Origin: a virus
Reading direction: 5' to 3' (one strand)
DNA: 21,421 nt
Virus record (IMG/VR): IMGVR_UViG_3300033153_002141
Location: 1 to 21,421 of that record
The notes under the pieces: model-generated
The model's database searches: none
Told to the model about the DNA's origin: nothing
What the model saw: the letters and a program-made list of their open reading frames with translations, nothing else
Program-made: the position numbers and the translations under genes
Part shown: positions 1 through 16,273 of the stretch, in pieces
Numbering within the stretch: position 1 is the stretch's first letter
How the letters are laid out: every line of letters begins with the position of its first letter

Positions 1-18
1 CTTAAATGATATTAGTAT

Positions 19-51
19 GCCTTCAGAGTCATTTTAAGACCCCTAGAAGGC
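19..51 (-). other. Imperfect stem-loop after the last gene
   Basis: The arms GCCTTC (19-24) and GAAGGC (46-51) are perfectly complementary. The stem can continue inward with a bulged T and a bulged G to a 7-nt AT-rich loop. It lies just downstream of the stop of the 70-residue gene that ends at 95. No U-tract follows on the minus strand, so it is not a convincing intrinsic terminator. It could be a processing site or chance. Bases 1-94 contain no gene that I can support. Confidence 0.3.
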
Positions 52-94
52 ACAAACTATCTATTACCTATACTAAGGTATTCCTCTAGTCTTT

Positions 95-307
95 TCACTT
101 TTTTAGCATAAGCCTTGTATATTTTACCCAGCAACCAAGGCTACCAAAGAAAGCAATGTATGTAGCATGAAACTTACCTATCTTGCCTACAAGGCAGACA
201 TAGAAGTCTCTAGTGCTGCACTTCTCATCATGAAGCTTACAGCAACCAGAAATATCTTCACCTGCCCATCTCTCTGGAAACCAAGTGCAATAGTCTTTAG
301 ATTTCAT
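95..307 (-). CDS. Small cysteine-rich protein with a phospholipase A2-like motif
   Basis: This 70-residue protein opens with CTWFP (C7-P11) and carries C22-C23-x-x-H26-D27, with further cysteines at 30, 38 and 59. A CCxxHD core is the calcium-dependent catalytic His-Asp site of secreted phospholipase A2. The usual PLA2 signature has two residues between the His and the next Cys; here there are three (D-E-K), so the match is not exact. Residues 46-61 are hydrophobic and the C-terminus is basic, which would suit membrane contact. The start has a good AGGAG site overlapping the end of the upstream gene. The position downstream of the tail-fibre genes is where T7-like phages keep holin and other lysis genes, so a membrane or lysis role is a reasonable inference. 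I recall similar short CTWFP/CCxxHD proteins in phages, but enzymatic activity is not shown by the sequence. Confidence 0.7.
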   Translation of the reverse strand: MKSKDYCTWFPERWAGEDISGCCKLHDEKCSTRDFYVCLVGKIGKFHATYIAFFGSLGCWVKYTRLMLKK

Positions 308-311
308 CTAC

Positions 312-620
312 TTACACTCCTATTATAGCATCACGCTCTGCTCTAAGAGTTATTGCTTCATCATCTAGTTGAGTAAGTCTATCTCTATCTGCTTGGCTAT
401 CTCTGCCATTACCTTTAGCCCTTAAAGAACGAATACTAAGAATATCTATCTCACTAAGCCTAGCATCAATCTCTGCTACTCTATTAGCCTCAATCTCTTC
501 CTGTGTAGGTGCTAACAGTACATCTTTTTCAGCCTCAGTTATAGTAGTTAAACCATCTTTAGGCGTTGCATCATCTTCATAAGCCCATACTTTATTATCA
601 TTATCTTTAAAATATTTCAT
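312..620 (-). CDS. Small tail-fibre-associated protein, possibly an assembly chaperone
   Basis: This is a 102-residue acidic protein. The N-terminus (MKYFKDNDNKVWAYEDD) resembles the opening of many phage tail-fibre assembly proteins: a short beta-hairpin with 'KYF.d..nkv.aye' spacing. From about residue 30 onward it is charged and likely helical (EEIEANRVAEIDARLSEID and similar), consistent with a coiled coil. It starts at an ATG with an AAAGGA site 7 bases upstream. It follows the probable fibre-tip gene directly and ends 4 bases before the PLA2-like gene. The chaperone role is inferred from the N-terminal resemblance, the coiled coil and the location; no catalytic motif is visible. It could instead be a minor structural protein. 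Confidence 0.75.
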   Translation of the reverse strand: MKYFKDNDNKVWAYEDDATPKDGLTTITEAEKDVLLAPTQEEIEANRVAEIDARLSEIDILSIRSLRAKGNGRDSQADRDRLTQLDDEAITLRAERDAIIGV

Positions 621-632
621 ATTATTTCCTTT

Positions 633-1301
633 TTATCTTAATTCTGACCAGGCTGCCAATGAACCTGTTAACCCACTTAATATGTATGTGCTTCCATTTG
701 GAACGACTGTTCTTAATGTTAAAGGAACTCCATTTCCTGATACTGTGTCTGCGACCACACCGGCAACTGTTATAATCCCTGTTTGAATACCAGAAGCAGT
801 TTGTAAAATTGATATATCAATTGGTCTGCCTGTAGTGTTTGTATATGTAACGCCACTTGACCTGCTTCCAGTTACAACAGTCCATGTTTGTGCTAAATCA
901 AATTTAGTAAAACTTCCATACATAGTCATATCACCATGCTCTAGCGTAGCACTTGATACTGTTGGTGTTCCTGTTGGAGTATCTACAGAAGTAAAAGTGA
1001 TAGTATCTGTATCAACTACTGATGCTACTACCCATCTACCATTAGGTGCATTTGTTGTAGCTACTAATCCTGTAACTCTAAAATATTGACCTACTATAAG
1101 ATTGTGAACTGCTGATGTATTTATTGTGATTGTTGTTGTCGCAAAGCTCCAAGAACTAACACCAATACTCTCACCTATTGTTAAGTCACCAATTTTAGTT
1201 TGAGCTGTGCTTATGTTAGTAATACAAAGAGCATCAACTTCTGCTTGAGTGTATATTGTTTCTCCCAAGTCTCTTGCTATTTCTAAATTATCTGCTACCA
1301 T
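633..1301 (-). CDS. Probable tail fibre tip / receptor-binding protein
   Basis: This 222-residue protein is rich in Thr, Ser, Val and Gly, as beta-structured fibre proteins are. The N-terminal 40 residues are mildly helical. The C-terminal part (about 135-222) contains TWTVVTGSRSSGVTYTNTTG followed by alternating hydrophobic strands, a pattern I associate with C-terminal domains of phage fibres and other virion surface proteins (W-x-x-V-T-x-S-R-x-x-G-x-x-Y-x-N). The ATG has an AAAGGAATGATAAA leader. It sits among fibre-related genes, after the DUF4376-type protein and before the small chaperone-like protein. The receptor-binding role is inferred from composition, this C-terminal pattern and context; no enzymatic depolymerase motif was seen. 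Confidence 0.7.
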   Translation of the reverse strand: MVADNLEIARDLGETIYTQAEVDALCITNISTAQTKIGDLTIGESIGVSSWSFATTTITINTSAVHNLIVGQYFRVTGLVATTNAPNGRWVVASVVDTDTITFTSVDTPTGTPTVSSATLEHGDMTMYGSFTKFDLAQTWTVVTGSRSSGVTYTNTTGRPIDISILQTASGIQTGIITVAGVVADTVSGNGVPLTLRTVVPNGSTYILSGLTGSLAAWSELR

Positions 1302-1335
1302 TTTATCATTCCTTTATTTTTATTTATGATTCTAC

Positions 1336-1788
1336 TCATACTATTTCTCCATTAAAGAATTTGTTTCTCTCTACACCAAACCAAATGGCAAAAGCTAACC
1401 AGTCTGCATCAGCTATTGGCATCTTAACACCATTGCTAAAATGAAAGACTGTGCTTGTGAATAACCCAGCCATTTGTTGTACTGTTACTGCTACAACTCC
1501 ATTCTGTGCTTCTTCGTTTAGAGGTATTTGGTACTCTACACCATTGAGGGTGTAAGGTAAACCTATCTCTTTAAGTTCTGAAGTTGTTAGAGGGTCTACT
1601 GCTTTTAATAACCAAGTAGAGCCATCCCAATAATGTTCGTCTGATGGCTTATCATCAATCAAAATAAAAGATTCGTCAGTAACCTCTACAGTTATATCTT
1701 TACCATCAGCATCAAATCTATTTTCTTGTTTAGTTGGTATGCTTGAAGCAACTAAAAAGCTATTGCTTTCTGTATTAAAGTATGTCAT
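1336..1788 (-). CDS. DUF4376-like tail-fibre-associated protein
   Basis: This protein has 150 residues if it starts at the ATG at 1788. The open frame extends to 1824, but the 1788 start forms a TAATG stop-start overlap with the fibre ORF upstream and has a GGAGG site six bases before it, so I chose it. The C-terminal half (NGVEYQIPLNEEAQNGV, then an alternating amphipathic segment and DWLAFAIWFG) has the layout of the DUF4376 domain found in phage tail-fibre assembly and baseplate-associated proteins. The N-terminal part includes HYWDGSTWL, a short Trp-containing hairpin seen in fibre-associated proteins. It probably helps fold or attach the fibre. The family assignment is from memory of the pattern and is moderate; the gene itself is secure. 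Confidence 0.8.
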   Translation of the reverse strand: MTYFNTESNSFLVASSIPTKQENRFDADGKDITVEVTDESFILIDDKPSDEHYWDGSTWLLKAVDPLTTSELKEIGLPYTLNGVEYQIPLNEEAQNGVVAVTVQQMAGLFTSTVFHFSNGVKMPIADADWLAFAIWFGVERNKFFNGEIV

Positions 1789-3050
1789 TATGTAGCCTCC
1801 GCTGTTTTTATGGTACAAGTCCATGATATTGTTGTCGCTGCTATTCCTGTAGCTTTAACAGATAAACCACCATTTGTAGTATCTGCAACTACGGCTATAC
1901 TTGATGCTGATAGAGAAGCATCAGTAAATAGTTGAGTTACTGTCGGTGTTCCAACTAATGCAGTTGTAGAGGCATTAGCTCCTCTTCTAATCAACCCTAC
2001 TACATCAAACATAACAGCAGCAGATCCACCATCATTACCTACAATGATAGCGTAGAATGACTGTGCTGATAAGTCTGGAAGTATCAACTGATTTGTTGCT
2101 GATGCTGCTGCTTGGTCAGAAGTGATTGTTGTTTGTGTTGCATCTGTTGTCTCAACATTAAGTGTGGTTATACCACTCTGCCCTTTACCTACTGTCGTGT
2201 GTGTTCCGATAGCAAACTTAGAATGAATGTTGTTGGTTGTACCAGCTTGACCTATTGCCAAACTATTTAATCCAGTTGGTAATGATGACTGTCCCATTGA
2301 GATAGCACCAGTTGAACGCATACTCATTACATTGTTTGTTTCAGTTGTAGCATGAGAAGCAGAGAAATCAACTTGTGTTCTTGATGCTGTTCCACTAATT
2401 TCCCAATGTCTAAAACTTAATCCTAATTCATTTGCATAAGTTGAGCTAGACAGTCCATTTCTTTGAAGCAGAAGAGTTTTAGCTGCAGCAGTTGTGTCAA
2501 CACCAAGTCCTGTTGCTATTGTTGTTTTACCAGTAGTACCTGTCATGGTTATTTTCTGATGACTAGATACATTAACACCATCACAAGCAATAACGAGTGA
2601 TGTTGCTATTGTTGAAGCATCAATATATTTCTGATACCCTGATGGTGCTGCTGGAAAAAGTATCTTACTCCACGATGTTCCTGAGTCTCCAACATTTAAA
2701 TCACCTGTAACCGTTAAGCTTGAATCAACAGTAGACCCCCAAGAAGCATCAGTTCCATCACTTGTAAAAACCTGACCTACTGTACCAACAGGAAGTCTTG
2801 TTGTAACATTAGAAGCATTTTTAAATATAATATCACCTCTAGTTGTCATAGGGTCAGAAAAACCTCCACCACCAGCAGATGTTGTTCCTTTCCATACCGC
2901 AGCACCTGAAGTAGCATCTAAACACTCATATGCTTCATCTGCTGTAACATCTAACCATTTAGAACCAACTGCATATCCACTTCCTGAGTCATCTGTAACT
3001 GCTGGTGCTACTGTTGCATCTCGTTCTCTGTGCTGAAGCACTTGCATCAT
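1788..3050 (-). CDS. Tail fibre, distal part (second frame of an apparently split fibre)
   Basis: This reading frame encodes about 420 residues of low-complexity, Thr/Ser/Ala/Gly-rich beta-structured fibre sequence. The segment DDSGSGYAVGSKWLDVTADE followed by AYECLDATSG is typical of the middle of long phage fibres rather than of an N-terminus, which suggests that this is the continuation of the fibre encoded at 2989-4605. The frame opens with TTG at 3053 and ATG at 3050 and 3047. I use 3050, but no strong Shine-Dalgarno site precedes it, so it may not be an independent start. The overlap with the upstream frame is about 60 bases and the relation is +1. The C-terminus flows by TAATG into the DUF4376-like gene. 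Either a translated second subunit, a programmed +1 frameshift product, or a fibre broken by an indel or assembly error. Confidence 0.8.
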   Translation of the reverse strand: MMQVLQHRERDATVAPAVTDDSGSGYAVGSKWLDVTADEAYECLDATSGAAVWKGTTSAGGGGFSDPMTTRGDIIFKNASNVTTRLPVGTVGQVFTSDGTDASWGSTVDSSLTVTGDLNVGDSGTSWSKILFPAAPSGYQKYIDASTIATSLVIACDGVNVSSHQKITMTGTTGKTTIATGLGVDTTAAAKTLLLQRNGLSSSTYANELGLSFRHWEISGTASRTQVDFSASHATTETNNVMSMRSTGAISMGQSSLPTGLNSLAIGQAGTTNNIHSKFAIGTHTTVGKGQSGITTLNVETTDATQTTITSDQAAASATNQLILPDLSAQSFYAIIVGNDGGSAAVMFDVVGLIRRGANASTTALVGTPTVTQLFTDASLSASSIAVVADTTNGGLSVKATGIAATTISWTCTIKTAEAT

Positions 3051-4605
3051 CAAGTAAAGCTCTACCAGCAGTAGTCAATGTAGCTACAGCATAAGTATCT
3101 GAAGCAGTTGTGTATATCATCTTATCTGCTGCTGTTGTTAATCCAGCTATTGAAGTTAATCCAGCATCATTAGGCTCATATACTCCTGTGTGTGTATGGT
3201 TACCTATAGCTAGTTGTCCTGCTCCTGTTCCAACATCTCCATTAGTATCAAGTAATTCATAAGTAACATCAGCATCAAGAACATTGGTTGCTGAGTAGGC
3301 TTGAACTGTTGTTCCTATGTCTCCATCAACAACAACATCAGCGTGAGAAGTCTCGTTAGCTGAAGTTACATCTGCTCCTGTTGATACTCCACTAAGTTTA
3401 GTTTTTTCTGTAGCTGTATATACTTTATTAGTTGTTCCATCTACATGATTATCAACATCAAAAGCATCTCCCTCAACAGAAGTAGGGTCATAAGTTGCTT
3501 TAGACATATCTCCTGAACCTGTGGAAACACCATATAATAACACATCAAGGTTATGTCCTGATATTCCTGCTGTAGCTAAAACAACGTTAACCCCACTTGT
3601 TACAGTAACATCTACACCATTTATTAGCTTTAACCCATTTACAAACACATCTATATGTCCTGCATCATAACCTCCATCAATAGGGAAAGTTGTAAGTGAT
3701 ACACCATCATAGTCTCCACTTGCTGAGCCTATTACGAAAGCTTCTCTTGCAGATGCTCCACTTACTACAGGGTCAAGAGTATCCCAAGCTGTTCCATTAT
3801 AGATTTTTAGCTTTTTTGTAACACTATAAAAGTACATGTCTCCCTCATCAGCACTTACTGGGTCTGATGCGAAAACTCCATGATAAATCCCAGTAAACTC
3901 ATCTAAACTTGCTTGAGCTGCACTCTCTGAAGCTGCTGCATTAGTCTCACTTGTAGAAGCTGCTGATTCACTAGCTGCTGCATTAGTTTCAGATGTACCT
4001 GCTGCACTCTCTGAAGCTGCTGCATTAGTCTCACTTGTAGAAGCTGCACTCTCTGAAGCTGCTGCATTAGTCTCACTTGTAGAAGCTGCACTCTCTGAAG
4101 CTGCTGCATTAGTCTCAGATGTACCTGCATTAGTTTCAGATGTTCCTGCTGCTGACTCACTAGCTGCTGCTGCACTCTCTGAAGCTGCTGCTGCTGCTGC
4201 ACTAACTACTGCCTCATCTGCTGCTGTCTCTGCTCTTTCTGCTGAAGGTTGGGCTAATGTAGAACCAAACTCTTCTGATGTAGTAGCTACCTCTAACCAG
4301 AATGTACTATCAGCAGGAGGAGCAACATAGTAAAGAATACTATTATCTACTACTGCCCACTTATCTACTGCCACTAAGTCATCAGATTGAGCAACATCTA
4401 GTCCCCTCTTCCATAGGTTGTCTGGATAACTCCAATCTGCTTGGTCTGTCCCTCCACCTTCTAATTCATCTTCACTCCCATCTGGGTCTAATCCATCATC
4501 ATAGATGTATACATAAGGTCTTGCATATTGTTCACTTCTAATTATGAAGTCACTCAAGAACCTATTTATACTACCATCAGGGTAGAATATCTTGCTGCTT
4601 ATCAT
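2989..4605 (-). CDS. Tail fibre, proximal part with virion-attachment domain
   Basis: This ORF encodes 538 residues. Residues 1-115 form a compact N-terminal domain (IFYPDGSINRFLSDF, then ILYYVAPPADSTFWLEVATT) analogous in size and layout to the tail-attachment domain of T7 gp17; the sequence resemblance is weak. Residues 133-233 are an Ala/Ser/Thr/Glu/Asn-rich repeat region, likely a trimeric helical shaft. Residues 234-525 are mixed beta regions, including GDMYFYSVTKKLKIYNGTAW and HTHTGVYEP. It reaches a typical mid-fibre sequence, ALLDDASASAQR, and then reads TRCNSSTSSYR and stops, while the expected fibre sequence continues in the +1 frame. The start ATG has an AAAGGA site. It lies directly after tail tubular protein B, where T7 would have internal virion genes. 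The fibre identity is strong; the true C-terminus is uncertain. Confidence 0.88.
   Translation of the reverse strand: MISSKIFYPDGSINRFLSDFIIRSEQYARPYVYIYDDGLDPDGSEDELEGGGTDQADWSYPDNLWKRGLDVAQSDDLVAVDKWAVVDNSILYYVAPPADSTFWLEVATTSEEFGSTLAQPSAERAETAADEAVVSAAAAAASESAAAASESAAGTSETNAGTSETNAAASESAASTSETNAAASESAASTSETNAAASESAAGTSETNAAASESAASTSETNAAASESAAQASLDEFTGIYHGVFASDPVSADEGDMYFYSVTKKLKIYNGTAWDTLDPVVSGASAREAFVIGSASGDYDGVSLTTFPIDGGYDAGHIDVFVNGLKLINGVDVTVTSGVNVVLATAGISGHNLDVLLYGVSTGSGDMSKATYDPTSVEGDAFDVDNHVDGTTNKVYTATEKTKLSGVSTGADVTSANETSHADVVVDGDIGTTVQAYSATNVLDADVTYELLDTNGDVGTGAGQLAIGNHTHTGVYEPNDAGLTSIAGLTTAADKMIYTTASDTYAVATLTTAGRALLDDASASAQRTRCNSSTSSYR
3907..4116 (-). repeat. Five 42-bp tandem repeats in the tail fibre gene
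   Basis: The fibre protein repeats a 14-residue unit ETNAAASESAASTS five times in a row (residues 164-233), with small changes such as AAGTS and AAQAS. Degenerate half-units precede it (residues 140-163; bases up to about 4188). At DNA level this is a 42-bp tandem repeat rich in GCTGC on the plus strand. Repeats of this kind form the extended shaft of lambda-Stf-like fibres and commonly change copy number. Confidence 0.9.
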
Positions 4606-4619
4606 TTATTTATTCCTTT

Positions 4620-6908
4620 CTATATTCTTGAAGACCTTTGAAAAAAGAAACCTTCTAAATTTGCTGTAGACAATATGAACCCTTTACTAGGCTCAACTGT
4701 ACTACTACTAAAAGTTATTTCTACTTTCTTACTGTCTGACATTACTGTTACTTTATCATCATCTGTGTATACTCTAGTATAATAAGGGTCATTTTCTACC
4801 CATAGAAGGGTATCATCCCAATCATCTGCATCTACCCAAGCAGTACCAAACATAATATCTTCATCAAATAAACTACTAGCTGTATTAGCTATAGTGGTAA
4901 CATACTTACTGTCATCTTCTATAGTATATTGCATAGTTCTTAATTGGTATCTACCTCTTACTGTACCCTTACCTTCACCATCTCTTATAAAGAACTCAGA
5001 GAACTTAATATGAGAAGTATACTCAGTATCTCCATCAGTAACATTATATCTATCTAAGTAAGATGTATTAGTGAAGTCACCTGGTGTCTCTAATAACATA
5101 TGAGTTAAATCCCCATTCTTGAATAGTATATATAGTTCATTGTTTATAATATGTGTACTTACTATCTCCTTATCAAATGTCCACTTATGAAATGCATTCT
5201 GTAAGTCTTCTTTACCTCTTACTACAGAAGTTAATACAATAAGTTCCTTTGGTGTGTCTGCTATCTCTAAGAAAGTATAGCCTAGTACATCATGTCCTAT
5301 AATTCTACTCACACTCTTATCTATATAAGAAGGGATATGTAGTGTCATAGGGATAGCCTCAGTAACTTGACTTCCTTTATCTGAAATCTTATAAGAATAT
5401 ATCTGACTATACCCACCTGCTTGATTACTGAAGAATATCCTATTACCAATAGCCTTAGCATTAGCTCCTTTACCATAAGTATAATTACTTAAAGGGGAGA
5501 TATCTGCTGAGTTAGGTGTTAAAGGTCCTTCTAAAGCAGTCAACTGAAACTGTGTATCATCAGAGAATAGTACAAGACTACCTGCTGTGCTTACTGCATG
5601 TCTCAGAATAGTTACATCTGTACTAGCTACTGCTAAGTCAATAACATCATCATCTAATACATTCTGGATAGTACTTACAAAGAACTTACCATACTCTCCT
5701 GTTGAAGATAGTATAATATTATCATCTGTAAGAAATCCTAATCTATTCTTATGGAAGAAGATGTTGTTTAAAGTATTCCCTATAAATGAGGGGTCTTGTA
5801 GTTCATCTAATCCACCTGATGTTCTGCTTTCCCATTTAGATACACCATCTAATGCACTACCATCTGTTATAATACCTTCATACTCATCAAACAAGAAACC
5901 ACCTGTAAGTCTATATAATACATGTGGCATTGTTGCTGGGTCTAGTGTAGTCTTTACACCTGGTGCAGTTGTTTCTTTCCAAGTCTTAGTTGAATCAGAA
6001 TACTTAAGGAAGTAGTCATCAAACTCTGCTGAAGTACCTCCTGATATCTTTACAATGAAACCATCTAAGGCTGCTGGTATCTGAGCTGGTAGCTTCTCAG
6101 CATCATCTAGTGTAGTCCATACACCTAATGAAGCCTCATTTCCAAATGTATCATCCCAAGACCAATCAGTTCCCGCAAAGTTATCATTATAAGCAACACT
6201 CCCACTAAAACTAGTAGCCAGACTATATACATAATCATCTTTAATTGCTTCTGCTATCTTCTTAGAAGTATTTACATCTATAGGTGTCTCTCCTGGTCTT
6301 GTATCTTCTGTAGCTGCAACAGTTGTGCCATTCAATCTATATTCATATCCAAGCATTAGGCTGCCTGATGTAATAGGGTCTGTACCTGATTGCTTCTGTT
6401 GTGATACTACTGATGTAGTTTTCTTAATCCAATAAAAAGCCATATCTTCATAACCATCAGAAGTAGAAACAGCAGAAGTCATATCTATTGTCTTTGTCTT
6501 ATTGATAAGGAATGTGTGGTCTCCTATAGTTAAGGCCTCAAAAGACTCCTTAGCTGTATCACTACCACTTACCTGTAGATAAGTATGTACAGTAGAGTTC
6601 TTATAAAGGAAAGCTCCTGTATTAGCATTAAATACATGTATATATCCATCACCAGGTATTATTACTATATACTGTTCTGTACCTGTACCTCTATCATAAG
6701 AGTATACATAGGCATCTGTAAGGTCAGCAGGTACTCCTGAGAGATTAGCTACTTCCTGTATAGGGTTCCTTCTAAGAACACCTCTAGTTAGAGAAGGAGT
6801 ACAATTCTCCATCTCCTCTACCTGACTATCAAATCTTCCTTCTTGATATTGTTGTGTAACTCCTGCATTCAATGATGAGAGAGTATTATTTACTAGTGAA
6901 CCTGGCAT
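4620..6908 (-). CDS. Tail tubular protein B (T7 gp12-like nozzle)
   Basis: This 762-residue protein is close in length to T7 gp12 (794). It forms the nozzle below the adaptor ring through which DNA leaves the short tail. Recognisable features are the N-terminal GSLVNNTLSSLNAGVTQQYQ and RFDSQVEEMENCTPSLTRGV (gp12-like proteins start with a 'GVSQQ...R...Q...N....GL..R' stretch) and a central FFHKNRLGFLTDDNIILSS (residues roughly 390-410), followed by VLFSDDTQFQL; both are diagnostic for the family. The ATG at 6908 lies 3 bases after the tail tubular A stop, with a GGGAG site inside that gene's end. The order capsid, tube A, tube B, fibre supports the call. No internal virion protein genes follow, unlike T7. 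Confidence 0.95.
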   Translation of the reverse strand: MPGSLVNNTLSSLNAGVTQQYQEGRFDSQVEEMENCTPSLTRGVLRRNPIQEVANLSGVPADLTDAYVYSYDRGTGTEQYIVIIPGDGYIHVFNANTGAFLYKNSTVHTYLQVSGSDTAKESFEALTIGDHTFLINKTKTIDMTSAVSTSDGYEDMAFYWIKKTTSVVSQQKQSGTDPITSGSLMLGYEYRLNGTTVAATEDTRPGETPIDVNTSKKIAEAIKDDYVYSLATSFSGSVAYNDNFAGTDWSWDDTFGNEASLGVWTTLDDAEKLPAQIPAALDGFIVKISGGTSAEFDDYFLKYSDSTKTWKETTAPGVKTTLDPATMPHVLYRLTGGFLFDEYEGIITDGSALDGVSKWESRTSGGLDELQDPSFIGNTLNNIFFHKNRLGFLTDDNIILSSTGEYGKFFVSTIQNVLDDDVIDLAVASTDVTILRHAVSTAGSLVLFSDDTQFQLTALEGPLTPNSADISPLSNYTYGKGANAKAIGNRIFFSNQAGGYSQIYSYKISDKGSQVTEAIPMTLHIPSYIDKSVSRIIGHDVLGYTFLEIADTPKELIVLTSVVRGKEDLQNAFHKWTFDKEIVSTHIINNELYILFKNGDLTHMLLETPGDFTNTSYLDRYNVTDGDTEYTSHIKFSEFFIRDGEGKGTVRGRYQLRTMQYTIEDDSKYVTTIANTASSLFDEDIMFGTAWVDADDWDDTLLWVENDPYYTRVYTDDDKVTVMSDSKKVEITFSSSTVEPSKGFILSTANLEGFFFQRSSRI

Positions 6909-6911
6909 ATT

Positions 6912-7568
6912 CTAAAACTCCCTTCTACCTTTATTTCCATATAATCCTTTGACTAAGTAACCGTTATGTATTCTAGTAGATACCCTACTATTACCTATAC
7001 CATAATCTTGTGACTGTAGCTGTCTTCTCTGTAAGTTAATAAGAGTATCACTCTCATCTCTAACAGTAAAACTATCTAACTCAGCAGAACCTATAACCTT
7101 CTGATGGAACTTCCTTGCAGCTCTCATAGTTATATATTCATATGCTTCAGGAGGCAAGTCACTATAATCAACTAACCATACTATGTCTGCCTCTAGTGTT
7201 TGCTCTATTATATATGTCTTATTAAGGTAATCATATACTCCTTCACTCTTTAATGTATACTGATGCTTATAACTTGAATTACCAAAGTCTGCTCTCAATG
7301 TATTAGGAGGCATATTAATAAAATCATTACTGTCTGGAAATAGTTTGAAGTCATAATCAGTATTAAAATACCAACCTCTTGTCTGTACTTCTACCATTGT
7401 CTTCTCTACTATTCTCTTAGCAGTCTCTCCATCTGTTCCCAAAGGAAGAGTGTCTACAACAGTCTCTGAAGTAAAAGGAACCTCGCCTATACTCAAAAGA
7501 CAATCATTTATCATGTCCAACTTACTTTTAGCATATACAGTCCCATCTGAGAATATCACATCTGCCAT
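6912..7568 (-). CDS. Tail tubular protein A (T7 gp11-like adaptor)
   Basis: This 218-residue protein is slightly longer than T7 gp11 (196). It forms the dodecameric adaptor ring between portal and nozzle. The N-terminus KLDMINDCLLSIGEVPF is the family's opening helix ('A.n.mL..iGe.p'), followed by the pattern MVEVQTRGWYFNTDYDFKL (W/Y/F in 'v...GW.fN.....L') and FINMPPNTLRAD. A later segment PPEAYEYITMRAARKFHQKV is the usual C-terminal helical signature. The start at 7568 has an AAAGGAG site. It is separated from the upstream HNH gene by 20 bases and is followed 3 bases later by tail tubular B. Confidence 0.93.
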   Translation of the reverse strand: MADVIFSDGTVYAKSKLDMINDCLLSIGEVPFTSETVVDTLPLGTDGETAKRIVEKTMVEVQTRGWYFNTDYDFKLFPDSNDFINMPPNTLRADFGNSSYKHQYTLKSEGVYDYLNKTYIIEQTLEADIVWLVDYSDLPPEAYEYITMRAARKFHQKVIGSAELDSFTVRDESDTLINLQRRQLQSQDYGIGNSRVSTRIHNGYLVKGLYGNKGRREF

Positions 7569-7588
7569 TTATCTTACTCCTTTATTAT

Positions 7589-7984
7589 TTAATAACCATA
7601 CTTCTGATGGTGTAGTCTGTGACAACACGCACAATACAATATACACTTCTCAGCTTCTTCTTTAATTACCTTGAAGGGGCGGCTCATAGCCAGTAGTTCT
7701 GATACTCCTGCTACCTTCTCTTCTGGGTTTATATGATGAAAGTCAAAGCATACCATATTATCTACAGTAGCTTCCTTAGCACATCCCTTACATTTATTTC
7801 CTAACATTTCTATTAGTTCTAACTGCATCCTTACTTGTCTTCTTTTTCTCTCTTGTCTTTTCCTTTTGTTTTCACAAGGCTTACAAGTAGCTCCTCTTCC
7901 TACACTTTTGGTTGCTGAGGTCATATAGACCCCGCATCCTGTGCAGAAGAGATTACTTTTACTACCATGGTTAGTGTTATTCAT
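7589..7984 (-). CDS. HNH endonuclease with N-terminal zinc ribbon
   Basis: This 131-residue protein has an N-terminal zinc-ribbon-like Cys set (C14-x2-C17, C34-x2-C37) and a very basic linker (residues 40-52, Lys/Arg rich). The HNH core follows: C65-x2-C68, DFHH (H83, H84), and C118-x2-C121 followed by HRLHH. The overall plan is the same as that of the HNH protein at 18385-18771. Such genes are usually free-standing homing endonucleases that spread between phages by cutting intron- or gene-less alleles. It occupies the slot between capsid and tail tubular A, with gaps of about 20 bases on either side, as an inserted gene would. Its activity and target are not visible. Confidence 0.9.
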   Translation of the reverse strand: MNNTNHGSKSNLFCTGCGVYMTSATKSVGRGATCKPCENKRKRQERKRRQVRMQLELIEMLGNKCKGCAKEATVDNMVCFDFHHINPEEKVAGVSELLAMSRPFKVIKEEAEKCILYCACCHRLHHQKYGY

Positions 7985-8005
7985 AATCTCATTCCTTCTT
8001 AGTTA

Positions 8006-8917
8006 CTATGTATCATCATTTATAACCACCATGCCCGTTGGATTAAGAGGTCCCATACCTAGAGCGTAAAATGAAGTTAACTGATAACCTAGTCTACGGA
8101 AGTCATAGTTAGACTCAGACTGAATGTCCATAGCCTTAACTACACCTGCTACATCTTTAGTGAACATTAACATAAGTAGTTTAGCATTAGTAGTAGTATC
8201 TAAGTGGTTAGTCCAACCAATAGAGAAACCTGCTACCTGTCTAATCATACCTGTATCAATACCACCATTATTAGAAGTAAAGTCTGCATTAACACCTCTA
8301 GTAGATTGTACAATGTTGTAGTAATCTTCTGGTGAAGTAATAACAGATGGTGTATCAGTTACATTCTTAACATTTAATGCTGCTTTAGAGTCATATAATG
8401 CTGTAATAAGAATATCACCTTTTGCTAGTGCTGTTGATGCTGCTGCATATCCTGTAGCTACAGTTGTAGTTGCTGCTACTTGTCCTGGTAGTGGTGTCAT
8501 TGCTGGAACATCATTACCAACTAGTTTGAATACATCCTTATCAATCTTAGTAGCTAGTACTTGTCCTGATTGAAATGCTAATTCCCCTCTTACTTCATAT
8601 TGAGCAAGTTTTTCATCTAGTGTATCTAGGAAGTGTGAGTGTACATATCTAGTACTTACTGTAATAGTTACCTCATCATTTGCCAGTACTTTAGAGATTA
8701 CCTCTTCACCTCTTACATGAGTCTGGATATCTCCCTCTGCTGCTTCACCTGTTACAATGAATTGTGCTGTCTTACCACCACTAATCTCTCTTGATTTGAT
8801 TAGTCCTAGTCCAATATTCTTCTCACGGAAGGCTTTGATTACCTCTCCTGTATATAGTTTTAATGCTGTGTCTCTTGTTGCATTCTTATTTGGTGTTTGT
8901 GCTACCATTGAAGCCAT
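8006..8917 (-). CDS. Major capsid protein (T7 gp10A-like)
   Basis: This 303-residue protein is similar to T7-like capsid proteins (gp10A, 345 residues) of the HK97 fold. Typical features are the N-terminal ALKLYTGEVIKAFREKNI, then SREISGGKTAQFIVTGEA, then THVRGEEV, matching the 'k.f.gevl.aF...ni......r.i..GksaqFp.iG...a..h..G..i' pattern at the start of this family. The C-terminal part has DIQSESNYDFRRLGYQLTSF and YALGMGPLNPTGMV, as expected ('e..y..r.....v.....G.g.LrPe'). It has a good AGGAGA site before the ATG, preceded by the longest non-coding gap in the window and a strong hairpin. No frameshifted 10B-like extension was seen. Confidence 0.95.
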   Translation of the reverse strand: MASMVAQTPNKNATRDTALKLYTGEVIKAFREKNIGLGLIKSREISGGKTAQFIVTGEAAEGDIQTHVRGEEVISKVLANDEVTITVSTRYVHSHFLDTLDEKLAQYEVRGELAFQSGQVLATKIDKDVFKLVGNDVPAMTPLPGQVAATTTVATGYAAASTALAKGDILITALYDSKAALNVKNVTDTPSVITSPEDYYNIVQSTRGVNADFTSNNGGIDTGMIRQVAGFSIGWTNHLDTTTNAKLLMLMFTKDVAGVVKAMDIQSESNYDFRRLGYQLTSFYALGMGPLNPTGMVVINDDT

Positions 8918-9050
8918 TATTATTTCTCCTGCCCTATTGGGACTTATGTATACTGTCTATTGTATATTTATTCTGTACTAATGTACTACTCTACTTAACA
9001 TGTCTGTTAGAGTTATCTTCTGTCACTATCCTTGAATAGCTTTATCAGGC

Positions 9051-9098
9051 TCAAGTGAAACCCTCTCAAAGGAGAGAAGGTGAGAGAGTCTCACTTGA
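9051..9098 (-). promoter_or_regulatory. 17-bp RNA hairpin upstream of the capsid gene
   Basis: Arms 9051-9067 and 9082-9098 pair over 17 consecutive positions, with two G-U pairs in the minus-strand RNA, around a 14-nt loop (9068-9081). In transcript order the arm TCAAGTGAGACTCTCTC comes first. No U-tract follows, so it is unlikely to be an ordinary terminator. It lies in the 203-base gap between scaffold and capsid, 134 bases before the capsid ATG. In T7 this region carries a phage promoter and RNase III sites lie between other genes. An mRNA processing or 5' stabilising element for the heavily expressed capsid message is my inference. The rest of 8918-9120 holds no ORF or clear promoter. 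Confidence 0.7.
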
Positions 9099-9120
9099 AC
9101 TTAATAGGGAGGCATAGGTA

Positions 9121-9918
9121 CTAACCTATTGCCCATCCTGTTGTATCTGTCTTTGCTAGTTTAGCTTCTACTGCCTTAGCAAAGGACTTGTGTGTTTTGT
9201 AGTCTTCACTACCTATATCTTTAAAGAAGTCTGCCTCAGATGTATACCCTTTGCCAGGGGTTACTTGTGGTGCATTAGTATGTAATGTAGTATCAGTAGT
9301 ATTACCTGCTTCATACTCAGCATACAATCCTTTTAACATAGCTTGTTGTGCTATCTTGCCTGAAGATGTCAGAGCTTTATTAAACTCTGCTAGTTCAGTT
9401 GCATCCTTGTTCTCATTAGCCCATCTAGTGACCTCTGTAAACTTCTCTACTCCACCTCCTAGTGTGTCAGTCATAGACTTAATAGCCTTATCCTTCTTAT
9501 ACTGTCTATACTCAATCTCTTCATCTACTTGCTCTTTAGTATAACCTTTTTCAGCAAGTTCTGTATAATCATCAGTAGATAATTCACCATTCTTATCAAG
9601 AGCATCAGCATACTTCTGAAATTCTCCTGCTTCTGGTGCCTTATCTTCTGTAGGAGCCTCTTCCTTCTCCTGTGTAGCTTCAGTATCACCCCCTTCCTCA
9701 GTCTCAGTTTTACCTTTGAACTTCTCCAATTCAAGATATGACTTAATTACTTCTTCAGTTGATTTACCTTTAAACTTATCAGGTACCTCAAAGTCTGGCG
9801 AGTCAGATGGTAGACTAGCCACCTCTTCTGCTTCACCTACTGGTGTCTCTAATGTTTCCTGTACCTCACTCTCTGATAGTACAGTTGATTGTTCTACAAT
9901 CTCTCCTTCTGCTCCCAT
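9121..9918 (-). CDS. Capsid assembly (scaffolding) protein, T7 gp9-like
   Basis: This 265-residue acidic protein lies just before the capsid gene; T7 gp9 is 307 residues. It contains VPDKFKGKSTEEVIKSYLELEK (about residues 45-66), the short motif most conserved in T7-like scaffolds, where a 'P.kFkGk..e...ksY.eLE' helix is followed by Glu-rich disordered sequence. The middle (70-100) is Glu/Thr/Ala rich. The later parts are predicted helical, ending with GYTSEADFFKDIGSEDYKTH and a short tail. Scaffolds guide shell assembly and leave before or during DNA packaging. It starts at 9918 by a TAATG overlap with the 55-residue gene upstream. The hairpin and gap before the capsid gene follow it. Confidence 0.92.
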   Translation of the reverse strand: MGAEGEIVEQSTVLSESEVQETLETPVGEAEEVASLPSDSPDFEVPDKFKGKSTEEVIKSYLELEKFKGKTETEEGGDTEATQEKEEAPTEDKAPEAGEFQKYADALDKNGELSTDDYTELAEKGYTKEQVDEEIEYRQYKKDKAIKSMTDTLGGGVEKFTEVTRWANENKDATELAEFNKALTSSGKIAQQAMLKGLYAEYEAGNTTDTTLHTNAPQVTPGKGYTSEADFFKDIGSEDYKTHKSFAKAVEAKLAKTDTTGWAIG

Positions 9919-10085
9919 TATCCTTTCTCTCCTCCATACTTATTGTACTCATCCCAAGAGTTAAAATCATACCTATACTTCTTAGGTACCTTCTCTACTA
10001 CCTCTGGCAACTTACCTGCTTCTGTCTCTACTACTGTTAGTCTAGCTGCCTTCTCTGCTCTCTGTGCCTTCGTCAATCCTGCCAT
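9918..10085 (-). CDS. Small 55-residue protein between portal and scaffold
   Basis: Reading the minus strand from the ATG at 10085 gives MAGLTKAQRAEKAARL at the start and RYDFNSWDEYNKYGGEKG at the end, then TAA. The stop shares its A with the scaffold ATG (TAATG at 9918). An AAAGGAGAG site precedes the start, inside the end of the portal gene. The tight fit between two structural genes and the strong ribosome site argue that it is real. The N-terminal half is basic and helical; the C-terminal half is aromatic. I do not recognise the family. A small virion or head-assembly protein is possible from context only. Confidence 0.8.
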   Translation of the reverse strand: MAGLTKAQRAEKAARLTVVETEAGKLPEVVEKVPKKYRYDFNSWDEYNKYGGEKG

Positions 10086-10088
10086 CTA

Positions 10089-11633
10089 TTACTCTCCTTT
10101 GTTGTTATCTATAGCCATCTGCCCATTCACTTCTTGTTCTTGTTGTGCTTGTTGCATCTGCATTTGTTGTTGTTCTTCTGCTTGTATCTGTTCTTGAGAC
10201 TTTACTATATCCTTTGGGCTCATACCAAGTGATGTAGCTATCTGTGATAAGTAAGCAGGTACATTTAAGTACTTAGCTATTACTTCAGGTCCTAACTGTG
10301 CTACTGACTGTAACATAGTATTAAGGTTCTGGAAGTCTCTCTCCCTAGATATAGCACTAATACCAGTTGTTACACTAGGTATAGTAAACTTTAATACATC
10401 AGGGTTTAACTCTTGTAATATAAGATGTATCATAGGAGTTTGAAACTCACTAGCTAATACACTAAATACACCACCTAATGTAGCTTCTAGTTCTGCTGCT
10501 GTAGCTCTTACCTCTGTAGCTGTAGTTCTTTCAGAGTCTCTTACCTGTCCTGATAACATCAAGAAGGCTCTACTAAGTCTCTGCTCTAACTGAGCTATAA
10601 GGTTTAGAGGTACTTGTAAGTCTGCTCCTTTATCTATCTGTAAAGTAGTTACCTCTCTCTCAAGGTCACCCATAACAAACTCACCATTCTCTGCATTGTT
10701 CAAGTCCTCTACTTGTAATGTACTACCTGGCTTTAATCCAAATAGATGCATAGCTGAGATACCTGCTCCCTCTACAATAGTTTGGGTAAGTCCTTCTAAG
10801 CTTCTTAAGTCACCTAGGTACTGAGATACTATACCTCTACCATATGACTCATTGTTTACAGTAGACCATCTTAAAGTAATATAAGGAAGTTTATCCTCAG
10901 TATAACTCTTCTCTGTGCCTTCTATAATAATACCATTAATCTCTTGAAAGACTTTGTACTTATTAGTACCCTCTCTAACAATCATAGTATATACTTCTAC
11001 TTGTCTTACTTCTTTACCATCACCACCTTGTACAGTAGTAGTCTCTTCTGCTTCTGCTAAAGTATCTTGTACCTTCTTAGGTAAAGCCTTTAAAGCTATT
11101 GTCTCTTTAATACAAGATGTCAGTACATTACCTACATAGTCTCTCTGTACTACATATTGGTAAGGACTAAACACTTTGAAAGAACCACCAGGTATCTTAT
11201 ATAACATAACATTACCAGTTATAATTAGAAGCTTAATAGCCTCATATATAGGTACCCTTAATGCCTTCTGATTTATATACTCTATTACATCCTGTTCTAC
11301 TTGAGCTAACTCAGAGTCTAGTTGTTTCATATCCTCTTCTTTAATATCTTTAACCTTCTCACTATCTGGGAGTAGTCTAAAGAATACACCAGTAGGAGGT
11401 ACCAAAGCTAATAGTAACTTAGAAGCCAATGTATTAACTGCATTAGGTCCTATACTATTAAAAGGTGTAGGCATTATTGCCCCCTCATCTTGGTCCTCTA
11501 CTGGAAATACATAAGGAAGTGTAAGTTGTGAGGCATCTCTCCATTCTTGTTCTAAACTATCTCTTATTGTTTCATTAGCAATATACCAATCCTTAGCTAG
11601 TCCATACTTTTCATGTAAGGTGCCTTCTTTCAT
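10089..11633 (-). CDS. Portal protein (T7 gp8-like head-tail connector)
   Basis: This 514-residue protein matches T7 gp8 (536) in size and layout. Hallmarks are the N-terminal LEQEWRDASQLTLPYVFP, then NSIGPNAVNTLASKLLLALVPP (residues about 60-82), which is the most recognisable head-tail connector motif ('G..a.n.LaskL...LfPp..pfF.L'), followed by FFRLL. The centre carries LPYITLRWSTVNNESYGRG, another family motif (W....ge.YGrg). The C-terminal region is helical, and the last 30 residues are Gln-rich (QEQIQAEEQQQMQMQQAQQ). Twelve copies form the DNA-packaging vertex. It starts at 11633 by TAATG overlap with the 78-residue gene and is followed closely by the 55-residue gene. Confidence 0.95.
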   Translation of the reverse strand: MKEGTLHEKYGLAKDWYIANETIRDSLEQEWRDASQLTLPYVFPVEDQDEGAIMPTPFNSIGPNAVNTLASKLLLALVPPTGVFFRLLPDSEKVKDIKEEDMKQLDSELAQVEQDVIEYINQKALRVPIYEAIKLLIITGNVMLYKIPGGSFKVFSPYQYVVQRDYVGNVLTSCIKETIALKALPKKVQDTLAEAEETTTVQGGDGKEVRQVEVYTMIVREGTNKYKVFQEINGIIIEGTEKSYTEDKLPYITLRWSTVNNESYGRGIVSQYLGDLRSLEGLTQTIVEGAGISAMHLFGLKPGSTLQVEDLNNAENGEFVMGDLEREVTTLQIDKGADLQVPLNLIAQLEQRLSRAFLMLSGQVRDSERTTATEVRATAAELEATLGGVFSVLASEFQTPMIHLILQELNPDVLKFTIPSVTTGISAISRERDFQNLNTMLQSVAQLGPEVIAKYLNVPAYLSQIATSLGMSPKDIVKSQEQIQAEEQQQMQMQQAQQEQEVNGQMAIDNNKGE

Positions 11634-11869
11634 TATATCTGTACTCCTGTCCCTTGTGCTGTATCTGTAGATGTAGTACTAGTATCAGCTTCTAAAGGAA
11701 TTCTTAATCCCCTTGTTCCTAGCTTCTTCTTAGCTACCATCTTTTCCTCACTATTCTCAGGCTCGTCAAACTCAGTCTCTTGAGCACTTAACTGGCTACC
11801 AACTGCTGTGTTAGTTATAATATCCTTTGGTGTCTCTGCTGCTACACTTCCACTCTTACCTCCACCCAT
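11633..11869 (-). CDS. Conserved small phage protein upstream of portal
   Basis: This 78-residue protein begins MGGGKSGSVAAETP and ends with KKKLGTRGLRIPL, then a Thr/Ser-rich tail TGVQI. Small proteins that start with MGG(G) and carry a 'k.lGt.gLrIpl' segment near a Gly-x-x-(I/L) end are frequent next to portal genes of podoviruses in my memory, with no defined function. It abuts the preceding gene (TAG then ATG, no gap) and leads into portal by TAATG. The composition is disordered apart from the basic segment around residues 45-58. A minor head component or packaging accessory is an inference from position. Confidence 0.75.
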   Translation of the reverse strand: MGGGKSGSVAAETPKDIITNTAVGSQLSAQETEFDEPENSEEKMVAKKKLGTRGLRIPLEADTSTTSTDTAQGTGVQI

Positions 11870-12052
11870 CTATTTAATCTCCTGTTCTTGTTCTTGAATT
11901 ATGTTTAACTTTAACTTAAGCTTCTCTATTAGTAGTTGTTGTCCCACTAGTATACCTAAGTCAAAGTCTCCTGTCTTACCTAATGGTAGTCTATTTGGAA
12001 AAGCCTCCTCTAAGTACTGCATTATGTATGCACTATCATTGCTCTTCTTCAT
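11870..12052 (-). CDS. Small hypothetical protein, 60 residues
   Basis: This short protein (MKKSNDSAYIMQYLEEAFPN...) has a likely helical C-terminus rich in Leu, Lys, Gln and Glu (LLIEKLKLKLNIIQEQEQEI), which suggests a coiled coil. It overlaps the end of the upstream gene by 17 bases and abuts the next. A GGAG sequence lies about six bases before its ATG, inside the upstream gene. I do not recognise the family. It belongs to the small-gene cluster in front of portal, a slot that in T7 (genes 6.5 to 7.3) holds minor and host-range virion proteins. Confidence 0.7.
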   Translation of the reverse strand: MKKSNDSAYIMQYLEEAFPNRLPLGKTGDFDLGILVGQQLLIEKLKLKLNIIQEQEQEIK

Positions 12053-12347
12053 TTATAATCTCCTCCTCTGCTATCTCATTATCAAGCATTGGAAATAAAC
12101 TGTTATCAAATATATAACTTGGTGGTTTAGAATCTTCTGGCAAGGTGTCTTTATTCTTAGCAATAAGATAAGCTCCTACTACCCCTAACACCATCTCTAA
12201 ATCAGCCTTATTCTCTGTTATCACACCTGCTTCACCTAGTCTCTCACACACCTCAGTTAGTACATCTTCTAGTACCTCACCTCTTGTTGCATAAGTTAGG
12301 TCCTCTGTTACATACTTACTTAACCCTTCACTTACATTATTAATCAT
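12036..12347 (-). CDS. Hypothetical protein, first gene of the structural block
   Basis: This is a 103-residue acidic, mostly helical protein starting MINNVSEGLSKYV. The frame is open to 12389, but the ATG at 12347 has an AGGAG site seven or eight bases upstream, whereas the 12389 codon lies within a palindrome and has none, so 12347 is preferred. The sequence from about 45 to 80 includes ENKADLEMVLGVVGAYLIAKN, a hydrophobic helix that may be buried rather than membrane-spanning. The C-terminus is Glu rich. No family recognised. It is the first gene after the intermodule gap, so it probably shares the transcript with portal and later genes. Confidence 0.75.
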   Translation of the reverse strand: MINNVSEGLSKYVTEDLTYATRGEVLEDVLTEVCERLGEAGVITENKADLEMVLGVVGAYLIAKNKDTLPEDSKPPSYIFDNSLFPMLDNEIAEEEIINEEEQ

Positions 12348-12381
12348 ATCATCTCTCCTCACTTTTATGATAGAGGTATAC

Positions 12382-12400
12382 TTAATCACTAACTGATTAA
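12382..12400. promoter_or_regulatory. Perfect inverted repeat TTAATCA-N5-TGATTAA
   Basis: Seven-base arms TTAATCA (12382-12388) and TGATTAA (12394-12400) flank a five-base spacer. The element lies 35 bases before the preferred start of the first structural-block gene, in the 133-base gap 12348-12480. The form suits a dimeric DNA-binding protein site. It could also be chance, because the region is very AT-rich. The surrounding gap shows no strong sigma-70 promoter. Confidence 0.4.
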
Positions 12401-12436
12401 ACTGCTATTTCTATATGCATAGTATTAGCTGTATAT

Positions 12437-12460
12437 CCCCTTCACCTTTAGGTAAAGAAG
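12437..12460 (-). other. Weak stem-loop after nrdG
   Basis: In the minus-strand RNA the arm CUUCUUUACC (12460-12451) pairs with GGUGAAGGGG (12446-12437) around a UAAA loop: ten consecutive pairs, three of them G-U. It lies 21 bases after the nrdG stop, at the border of the replication and structural blocks. There is no U-tract, so it is not a standard terminator. RNA processing or partial attenuation is possible. Confidence 0.35.
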
Positions 12461-12480
12461 TAGACTTCCTACATTATGGG

Positions 12481-12897
12481 CTACAATCTAATAAATCTTT
12501 GGTTAGTTCCTTCTGTTCCTAATCCTCCTAACTCTTCTATATAAGGACCTGTCTTGATGAAGTCTAGGTAGTACACAAGTTCAGAATTAATCTCCTTCAA
12601 CTCATATCCTGTATATAGGCATAGCTTAAGTCCTTTATCTTTAATGTAATCACATAAAGTTATTAGTCCATTAGCTTCCCACTCACCACCATAGAATAGT
12701 ATGCAAGTTACATGCTTATGTTTAAGTAGTAGTTTATCTATCTCACATACAGTTAAGTATTTACCTAACTCTGGGTTCCAAGTCTGGGCTGAGTGACAAC
12801 CATCACATCTTAAAGGACATCCTGATACAGAGATAGCCAGGCTTATCTCACCTGGTACCTCTTGTAATACTATACTTGCTTCACTATACTTTAGCAT
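12481..12897 (-). CDS. nrdG: Anaerobic ribonucleotide reductase activating enzyme (radical SAM)
   Basis: This 138-residue protein has the radical-SAM cluster motif C27-x3-C31-x2-C34 in SGCPLRCDGCHSAQTW, the characteristic NrdG form with HS..W after the third Cys. FYGGEWE corresponds to the glycine-rich SAM-binding strand (usually GGEP or similar). It would use a [4Fe-4S] cluster and S-adenosylmethionine to place the glycyl radical on NrdD. The length fits phage NrdG (T4 NrdG is about 156). It overlaps the end of nrdD by 14 bases, so the two are almost certainly co-expressed. It is the last gene of the replication and nucleotide block. Confidence 0.95.
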   Translation of the reverse strand: MLKYSEASIVLQEVPGEISLAISVSGCPLRCDGCHSAQTWNPELGKYLTVCEIDKLLLKHKHVTCILFYGGEWEANGLITLCDYIKDKGLKLCLYTGYELKEINSELVYYLDFIKTGPYIEELGGLGTEGTNQRFIRL

Positions 12898-14665
12898 AAT
12901 CTCTTATACCTTCTTCCACTCTTCTCTCTGCCGAGAAGCTCTTAACCTTCTTAAGGTAGCCTATTACCCTAGTAGCCCAAGATATGTCCTTAGAACCACA
13001 CTCAGTACACTCATACTTAGTCTGTTTATTTACATAGCCACAGTCTTCACAAATTGTTACCTTGATATTGAAACAGAAGTATTCACATCCCTCTAATACT
13101 GCTACATCTAGTAACTTCATAAAGCCTTCCTTAGTAGGATACTCTTCTAGGTTACAATGATATGCTGAACCTCCATCTAAGAACTCACTAGTGTCCTTAC
13201 CATGTAGTGCAAACTTCTCTAGGATATCTACTTCATCACTCTCTACAATATATAGATAACTATTGTAACAGTCTCTAGGTACTATATACCCATCTGCTCT
13301 ATCCCACTTAGCGTTCTTAACTCCTAGGTTCTCAGCAGGTACAAACTCTGTATTAAACTTAGCTCCATATTCCTTACTAGCTATCTTGTTACCTTCTGAG
13401 ATAATCTGTAGTAAGTCTCTTACCCAAGTAGTATATTCTGTATTATTACTAATCTCATAGCCTAAGTACTCTGCTGCTTCTACTATACCATTCACTCCAA
13501 TAGTTAGGTATTGCTTCTCTGTAGTGATGTATCCTTCTGAGTATACAGGTAACATTCCTGCCTCAATATAGTCATCAAATAAATCCTTAAATGCTAACTG
13601 ATACTTTCTTACCTTCTCAGATTCCTCTCCTACATCTCTACCATCTTGTATCATTCTATTCATATTCATAGTAATAACATTCATTGAACCTGTAGCTACA
13701 CCACCTGCTCCTAGTGAATATGAGAACTCATTGATACTATCTGATATATCATTCTTCAATCTACAGCAAGAGCTTAATGCATGTGCTGATTCATTAGTGA
13801 ATGTAAAGAATGAATTACCTTCTGCATACTCTCCTGCTATGAACTCTTGGTATTCTTTATCTACAAATGTCTCTCCATCATTAAGTGATGCTGAAGTTAC
13901 AACAGGGAATGTAAGTAGTGCTTGTTCTCTCTCCTTATTAAACCACTTCATAAAGAACTTCTGTAGTTTATGTAGGCTATCATAAGTAGGTACATCACCA
14001 TCAGGGTATACAAAGTTATCAAACATAGCCTCAAAGTAAGGCTTATCATATATACTAATGTTCCAGAATACTGATTGAAACCCTCTAGCTGATGCTGGTT
14101 GGTTCAATGCAAATACTGTATGCTGTAACTGATTAGCTATAATATTTGTATGTGTCTCTAGGTAGTTATCACCATAATCCTTTCTAGCAAAGTGGTCAAA
14201 ATACATCAACCATTCTACTGTAGCTACTGCCCCTGCAAACTGTGCAGAGATAGCAAAGACTAAATTAATGAAGCCACCATTGAAAGAGGCTAGGTGCTTA
14301 GGTGCCGCTGAGTCACCTCCAAATCCTTTAAGTCCATCTAATAGGAATGGGTATAGGCTTACTGATACACAGTATGGATTAAGGCTTGTCTCATCATGTA
14401 CATAAATCTCATGTGCTTCTACCTGTCTTTCATACTCCTCAGCTAATTCCTCTCCATGTCTTGCTGTAATTCTTTCTTTAATTAGAGACCTGTTTACTTG
14501 GATGTTAATATCCTTGTTAATTTCTGCCCCCATTGTAGCAATGTTATGTGAAGATACATTAGCATTTGCATCTAACTTACTCCCATCTGCTCCATTCTCT
14601 GCTCCTATATATGCCTTAATAAAATTCTTCTTTGCCTCTACTTGTGCCCCTGTTAATCTAATCAT
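12884..14665 (-). CDS. nrdD: Anaerobic (class III) ribonucleoside-triphosphate reductase
   Basis: This 593-residue enzyme reduces ribonucleoside triphosphates to deoxy forms using a glycyl radical, in the absence of oxygen. Visible key sites are C99 in HDETSLNPYC, C300-C301 in ESAHALSSCCRL (thiyl radical region, like T4 C290), a C-terminal zinc site C539-x2-C542 and C553-x2-C556, and the glycyl radical G569 in RVIGYL (usual form RVxGYL). The size is close to T4 NrdD (605), and the N-terminal ATP-cone of the bacterial enzymes appears to be absent, which would remove dATP feedback. That suits a phage making DNA quickly. The start at 14665 has AAAGGA upstream. It follows the Cas4-like nuclease gene after 16 bases and overlaps nrdG. 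Confidence 0.97.
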   Translation of the reverse strand: MIRLTGAQVEAKKNFIKAYIGAENGADGSKLDANANVSSHNIATMGAEINKDINIQVNRSLIKERITARHGEELAEEYERQVEAHEIYVHDETSLNPYCVSVSLYPFLLDGLKGFGGDSAAPKHLASFNGGFINLVFAISAQFAGAVATVEWLMYFDHFARKDYGDNYLETHTNIIANQLQHTVFALNQPASARGFQSVFWNISIYDKPYFEAMFDNFVYPDGDVPTYDSLHKLQKFFMKWFNKEREQALLTFPVVTSASLNDGETFVDKEYQEFIAGEYAEGNSFFTFTNESAHALSSCCRLKNDISDSINEFSYSLGAGGVATGSMNVITMNMNRMIQDGRDVGEESEKVRKYQLAFKDLFDDYIEAGMLPVYSEGYITTEKQYLTIGVNGIVEAAEYLGYEISNNTEYTTWVRDLLQIISEGNKIASKEYGAKFNTEFVPAENLGVKNAKWDRADGYIVPRDCYNSYLYIVESDEVDILEKFALHGKDTSEFLDGGSAYHCNLEEYPTKEGFMKLLDVAVLEGCEYFCFNIKVTICEDCGYVNKQTKYECTECGSKDISWATRVIGYLKKVKSFSAERRVEEGIRDYAKV

Positions 14666-14681
14666 TCCTTAATATCCTTTC

Positions 14682-16107: not shown

Positions 16108-16259
16108 TATTTCTTTCTCCCTTTAGTTTTCTTCTGCTTCTGTTTAAGCTCTTCTATTATCTCATCCATTCTAAATAGGTCTAAGGGTTCTCTTATCCCA
16201 TACCTACCTTTGAATATCTCTATGGCTTCTATTACCATATCTTGATTAGTATCTTCCAT
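16107..16259 (-). CDS. Small 50-residue charged protein
   Basis: This short gene begins MEDTNQDMVIEAIEIFKGRY and ends with a Lys/Gln-rich tail (about residues 39-50) before TAA. It has an AGGAG site about eight bases before its ATG at 16259, lies 14 bases after the endonuclease VII-like gene, and its stop shares an A with the start of the MazG-like gene (TAATG). The length and coupling make it credible, although it is shorter than most called genes. The tail is strongly basic, as in small nucleic-acid-binding proteins. Family not recognised. Confidence 0.75.
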   Translation of the reverse strand: MEDTNQDMVIEAIEIFKGRYGIREPLDLFRMDEIIEELKQKQKKTKGRKK

Positions 16260-16273
16260 ACTACTTCTCCTCT

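What the first reader, a model, noticed from the sequence alone, without database searches (positions are those of the whole stretch)
2989..3080. Tail fibre split across two overlapping frames in a +1 relation
The proximal ORF reaches typical mid-fibre sequence (ALLDDASASAQR) and then runs only 11 odd residues (TRCNSSTSSYR) to a stop. The +1 frame, opening about 60 bases before that stop, at once continues with characteristic fibre sequence (TVAPAVTDDSGSGY). Its possible starts (TTG 3053, ATG 3050, ATG 3047) lack a strong Shine-Dalgarno site. The joined product would be about 940 residues. Options are a programmed +1 frameshift near the AGAACGAGAT stretch, a genuine two-subunit fibre, a recent indel, or an assembly error.
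Basis: partly seen in the sequence, partly recalled or inferred. Interest (0 to 1): 0.7.

Follow-up and report, generated by a model that had tools for sequence, protein, structure and literature searches.

The report
Phage fibre gene broken at joint
The tail-fibre gene of this T7-like phage is a patchwork of recently acquired pieces, and two pieces are joined out of reading frame; this looks like an accident of piece-swapping (or a sequencing error), not a device that makes ribosomes change frame.

Summary
On the minus strand ORF1 (4605-2989, 538 aa) carries the conserved fibre anchor and ends 11 unrelated residues after a known fibre module (A). Module B begins at once in the +1 frame, in ORF2 (3053-1788). 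Codon statistics put the frame switch at about 3030-3012.

In related phages all 39 copies of A run on with xTL after QR, and all 20 copies of B carry their own lead residues. The window lacks both edges, so the site is a deletion-like joint between two modules that happens to be out of frame. No other viral contig joins A to B within 30 bases in any frame. Relatives keep A and B inside longer ORFs; the two closest with a complete fibre gene have one ORF (1136 and 1228 aa).

ORF2 has no Shine-Dalgarno site, although most genes here have one, and its first residues are an out-of-frame reading of module A. No known +1 shift signal is present. Best reading: an out-of-frame joint made during fibre module swapping, giving a truncated fibre. 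A sequencing or assembly error cannot be excluded without reads. Programmed frameshifting or a two-subunit fibre is unlikely.

Side result: the clade avoids CpG and GATC almost completely, except in the swapped distal fibre.

The parts
2989..4605 (-). ORF1, proximal tail fibre: conserved anchor (about residues 1-120), alanine/serine-rich ASES/TSETNA coil repeats (21/42-base units), then fibre modules ending in module A
   Evidence: anchor 63% identical to L121/L122 over residues 1-121
3022..3168 (-). Module A (DAGLTSIAGLTTAADKMIYTTASDTYAVATLTTAGRALLDDASASAQRT), truncated after QRT
   Evidence: up to 89% identity to many viral contigs in the best segments; 39 of 39 copies elsewhere continue xTL after QR
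3012..3030 (-). Frame-switch zone and module joint; holds ACG/CGA, codons almost absent from the window, and one of its rare CG dinucleotides
   Evidence: change-point scan, frame scores
2989..3024 (-). Out-of-frame tail of ORF1 (11 residues TRCNSSTSSYR) and its TGA stop at 2991-2989
2871..3020 (-). Module B (DATVAPAVTDDSGSGYAVGSKWLDVTADEAYECLDATSGAAVWKGTTSAG), small fibre domain with invariant P, G-Y, G-S-W and A-W positions
   Evidence: phrog_33012 E 5e-14
1788..3053 (-). ORF2, distal tail fibre; no Shine-Dalgarno site; first about 11 residues are an out-of-frame reading of module A
1336..1788 (-). Next gene downstream (phrog_2837 tail protein, weak). Its likely start is ATG 1788-1786, overlapping the ORF2 stop as TAATG with GGAGG upstream
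   Evidence: contrast with the ORF1/ORF2 junction
4620..6908 (-). Nozzle (tail tube B) protein used to find relatives
   Evidence: PF25675 E 1.6e-129

Best explanation
The gene is a mosaic T7-like tail fibre whose distal half is repeatedly replaced by imported modules. Two modules, A and B, have been joined by a deletion or illegitimate recombination that removed the normal end of A and the normal lead of B and left the second module one base out of frame. In the genome as assembled, ribosomes finish the anchor, coil and module A, add 11 meaningless residues and stop. The distal fibre (B to the C-terminus) is then not made, or made only at trace level from weak internal starts. Shown: the split, the switch zone, the absence of both module edges, the lack of a ribosome-binding site. 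Inferred: that the event was recombination or deletion, and that the product is a truncated fibre that would cost the phage adsorption unless intact copies circulate.
For: Frame switch at 3030-3012. 39 of 39 A copies continue xTL after QR and 20 of 20 B copies carry their own lead, mostly N/K/H-rich; neither edge is present in the window in either frame. A and B lie within longer ORFs elsewhere: at least 83 aa follow A, and B's DD motif starts at aa 43 or later except in one ORF cut by a contig end. A close A-B join occurs in no other viral contig. The near relatives L003 and L004 have one-ORF fibres of 1136 and 1228 aa with the same kind of anchor. The CpG ratio rises from 0.06 to 0.23 towards the distal fibre, with a change point near 3876 (interval 3360-4152), and the same contrast is seen in L003 and L004 (0.014-0.019 outside, 0.22 in the distal fibre), so the distal fibre looks like a recent import in all three. 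The only GATC in the window (1 seen, about 50 expected) is at 2023, in ORF2. No other frame break was noticed among the conserved genes.
Against: No relative with an A-B join was found, so the ancestral in-frame state is not seen. No reads are available. A lytic phage with a truncated fibre should be selected against, which favours an error or some rescue mechanism. The CpG change point is not at the joint itself; A and B both lie in the imported zone.
Confidence: 0.58

Rival explanations
1. Sequencing or assembly error: the phage has an in-frame joint and the frame break is an artefact of the contig.
For: The contig is an IMG/VR virus record, a fragment with no reads on hand. The switch zone contains codons and a CG pair that the window otherwise nearly avoids, as an erroneous base would. 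A working phage needs its fibre.
Against: No homopolymer at the site; the other conserved genes of the contig are open. A chimera made by shared k-mers would need long identity at the joint, whereas A copies elsewhere diverge right after QR. A single-base error alone would not explain the loss of both module edges.
Confidence: 0.25
2. Two-subunit fibre: ORF2 is translated on its own from 3053/3050/3047 and assembles onto the proximal fibre.
For: ORF2 has possible starts; in several phages module B lies near the N-terminus of a separate tail gene; a nozzle relative, L013, has a short fibre followed by a second ORF.
Against: No Shine-Dalgarno site at any of the three starts while most genes here have one. 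The 60-base overlap is unlike the tight TAATG coupling with GGAGG at the next gene. The N-terminal residues are an out-of-frame reading of a conserved module. B's DD motif starts at aa 43 or later in separate-gene relatives, against about aa 21 here.
Confidence: 0.11
3. Programmed +1 frameshift in the AGAACGAGA stretch fuses the two ORFs at a fixed ratio, giving short and long fibres.
For: The frames overlap by more than 60 bases and the +1 product joins two real fibre modules. Rare codons (ACG 4 of 413 Thr codons, CGA 0 of 180 Arg codons) lie at the switch. SPP1 gp17.1* is a known +1 case (PMC6316719).
Against: No P-site codon that re-pairs well in the +1 frame and no stop codon next to the switch, unlike CCC-UAA in SPP1. 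AGA, the codon after ACG, is the commonest Arg codon here. No relative shares the site. The missing module edges point to a joint.
Confidence: 0.06

Closest known systems
T7-like podovirus tail fibres (anchor plus swapped distal modules), as in contigs L003/L121 and L004
   Same: Same position after the nozzle gene, homologous anchor (63% identity to L121), coil repeats, distal part of different composition
   Different: Relatives have one continuous fibre ORF (1136 and 1228 aa); the window's is split
Phage SPP1 gp17.1/gp17.1* +1 programmed frameshift (PMC6316719)
   Same: Tail protein with a possible +1 extension
   Different: SPP1 shifts at CCC next to the stop codon; here the switch is about 30 bases before the stop, without such a signal
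Tail genes that carry module B near the N-terminus (Ruegeria phage vB_RpoP-V13, Rhizobium phage RHph_N3_13)
   Same: Homologous module B near the start of a separate tail gene
   Different: Those genes have their own N-terminal residues before B (tens of residues); ORF2 here has only an out-of-frame reading of module A

Membership tests
T7-like tail fibre | Gene directly after the nozzle gene, with an N-terminal anchor homologous to that of related phages | tested here: met
T7-like tail fibre | One continuous reading frame | tested here: not met
Programmed +1 frameshift gene | Slippery codon able to re-pair in the +1 frame next to a stop or hungry codon | tested here: not met
   reading of 3080-2986 with codon counts; judged by eye against the SPP1 site
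Programmed +1 frameshift gene | Layout and site conserved in relatives | tested here: not met
   no A-B join elsewhere in viral contigs; relatives with one ORF
Programmed +1 frameshift gene | Both products present in virions | not testable with these tools
   needs proteomics
Two-gene tail fibre | Own ribosome-binding site and start for the distal gene | tested here: not met
Two-gene tail fibre | Native N-terminus before the first distal domain | tested here: not met

The most novel reading that the evidence does not exclude
An unrecognised +1 recoding site, or leaky internal initiation, that lets one phage make both a short and a long fibre from the same gene without any known shift signal.
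Probability: 0.06. Interest if true: 0.6.

Novelty: new member of a known kind. Interest (0 to 1): 0.22.

Why it matters
If the break is real, it catches a fibre gene in the act of failed module swapping, the process by which phages change their receptor-binding parts. If it is an error, it warns against reading split fibres in metagenomic contigs as recoding. The almost complete avoidance of CpG and GATC in this clade, relaxed only in the swapped fibre end, gives a simple mark for how recently fibre pieces were acquired.

Tried and rejected
Megablast of the window against phage records: no match. Searches for relatives of ORF2 as a whole and of its distal part found none. Nozzle relatives in bacterial genome contigs: none, so no host clue. 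Inverted repeats around the fibre, to test an invertible segment: the longest is 31 nt at 71% complementarity, no convincing pair. Terminator and promoter scan: no more hits than shuffles. The read-through translation with a four-letter word met a second ACGA at residue 803 and was not used beyond the joint. Structure of module B: low confidence (pLDDT 66) and no significant fold or sequence match in the PDB. Literature searches for fibre frameshifts gave only SPP1 as a useful parallel; a search on CpG depletion in phages gave nothing useful.

Full report
What is there. The window is a 21,421-base virus record of a T7-like podovirus: primase-helicase, DNA polymerase A, portal, capsid, tail tube and nozzle proteins all lie on the minus strand. 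The fibre follows the nozzle gene.

Where the frame changes. Codon usage of the window's other genes, scored along the region, favours the ORF1 frame by about 9-16 log units down to about 3042 and the ORF2 frame by about 10-16 units from about 3012. The best single change point is at 3021, with neighbours between 3030 and 3012 nearly as good. The zone holds ACG (4 of 413 Thr codons) and, in the other frame, CGA (0 of 180 Arg codons), and one of the window's 57 CG dinucleotides (697 expected).

What is joined. The sequence before the switch is a widespread fibre module, A (AADKMIYTTASDTYAVATLTTAGRALLDDASASAQR; most of the 118 viral-contig hits to ORF1 fall on it). The sequence after it is another, B (DATVAPAVTDDSGSGYAVGSKW...). 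In 26 other loci, 39 of 39 A copies continue with xTL after QR, usually TTLGL. All 20 B copies found are preceded by their own lead, mostly an N-, K- or H-rich stretch such as NNL. The window has neither. The site is thus a joint that lacks the edges of both modules, and it lies out of frame. A pattern for A followed by B within 0-30 bases, in any frame, found nothing else in 2.9 million viral contigs; it does match the window itself.

Relatives. Nozzle relatives at about 65% identity (L003, L004) have one fibre ORF of 1136 and 1228 aa with the same kind of anchor and coil. Across relatives of A and B the modules sit inside longer ORFs: at least 83 aa follow A, and B's DD motif starts at residue 43 or later except where a contig end cuts the ORF. 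More distant nozzle relatives have short fibres followed by other ORFs (L008, L013), so split fibres as such do occur.

Translation of ORF2. Its three possible starts have only -2.8 kcal/mol of anti-Shine-Dalgarno pairing, against -5.4 or stronger for 22 of the 26 other starts scored. One of the four weak ones, 1824, is probably misassigned: the ATG at 1788 follows GGAGG and overlaps the ORF2 stop as TAATG. This shows what a coupled junction looks like in this phage; the ORF1/ORF2 junction is nothing like it.

Mosaic origin. CpG is strongly avoided (ratio 0.06 over 3021-21421) but less so over 1-3020 (0.23). A change-point test puts the boundary near 3876 (interval 3360-4152; gain 18.8 log units, maximum of 300 permutations 10.4). 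L003 and L004 show the same: 0.019 and 0.014 outside the fibre, 0.22 in its distal part. GATC occurs once in the window against about 50 expected, at 2023 in ORF2. The distal fibre, modules A and B included, is therefore probably a recent import (inference).

Conclusion. The simplest account is an out-of-frame joint formed while fibre modules were exchanged. Whether the break is present in living phage or was added by a sequencing or assembly error cannot be told without reads. Programmed frameshifting lacks a signal and conservation; a two-subunit fibre lacks a start site and a native N-terminus.

Noticed in passing
window 1-21421; L002-L007: Extreme CpG avoidance (57 CG against 697 expected; relatives at 0.007-0.064 of expectation), relaxed in the distal fibre and the genes after it. 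May reflect a CpG-directed host defence or host composition.
   Followed up: partly
window 2023; L003, L004, L011: GATC almost absent (1 in the window against about 50 expected; 0 in L003, L004 and L011), which suggests a GATC-cutting restriction enzyme in the hosts. GGCC is also low in the window (1 against about 13).
   Followed up: partly
window 12481-14665: Phage-encoded anaerobic ribonucleotide reductase (NrdD) and a radical-SAM activase-like protein, which suggests an anaerobic or facultative host.
   Followed up: no
window 7589-7984, 16274-16681, 18385-18771: Three small genes between core genes: 16274-16681 matches endonuclease VII, and the other two look like HNH-type endonucleases by eye (no Pfam match above cut-off).
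   Followed up: no
window 1336-1824: The listed start at 1824 is probably wrong; ATG 1788, with GGAGG upstream and a TAATG overlap with ORF2, is the likely start.
   Followed up: yes
window 3907-4221: Tandem coil repeats of 21/42 bases (ASESAA.TSETNAA) in the proximal fibre; the copy number may vary.
   Followed up: no
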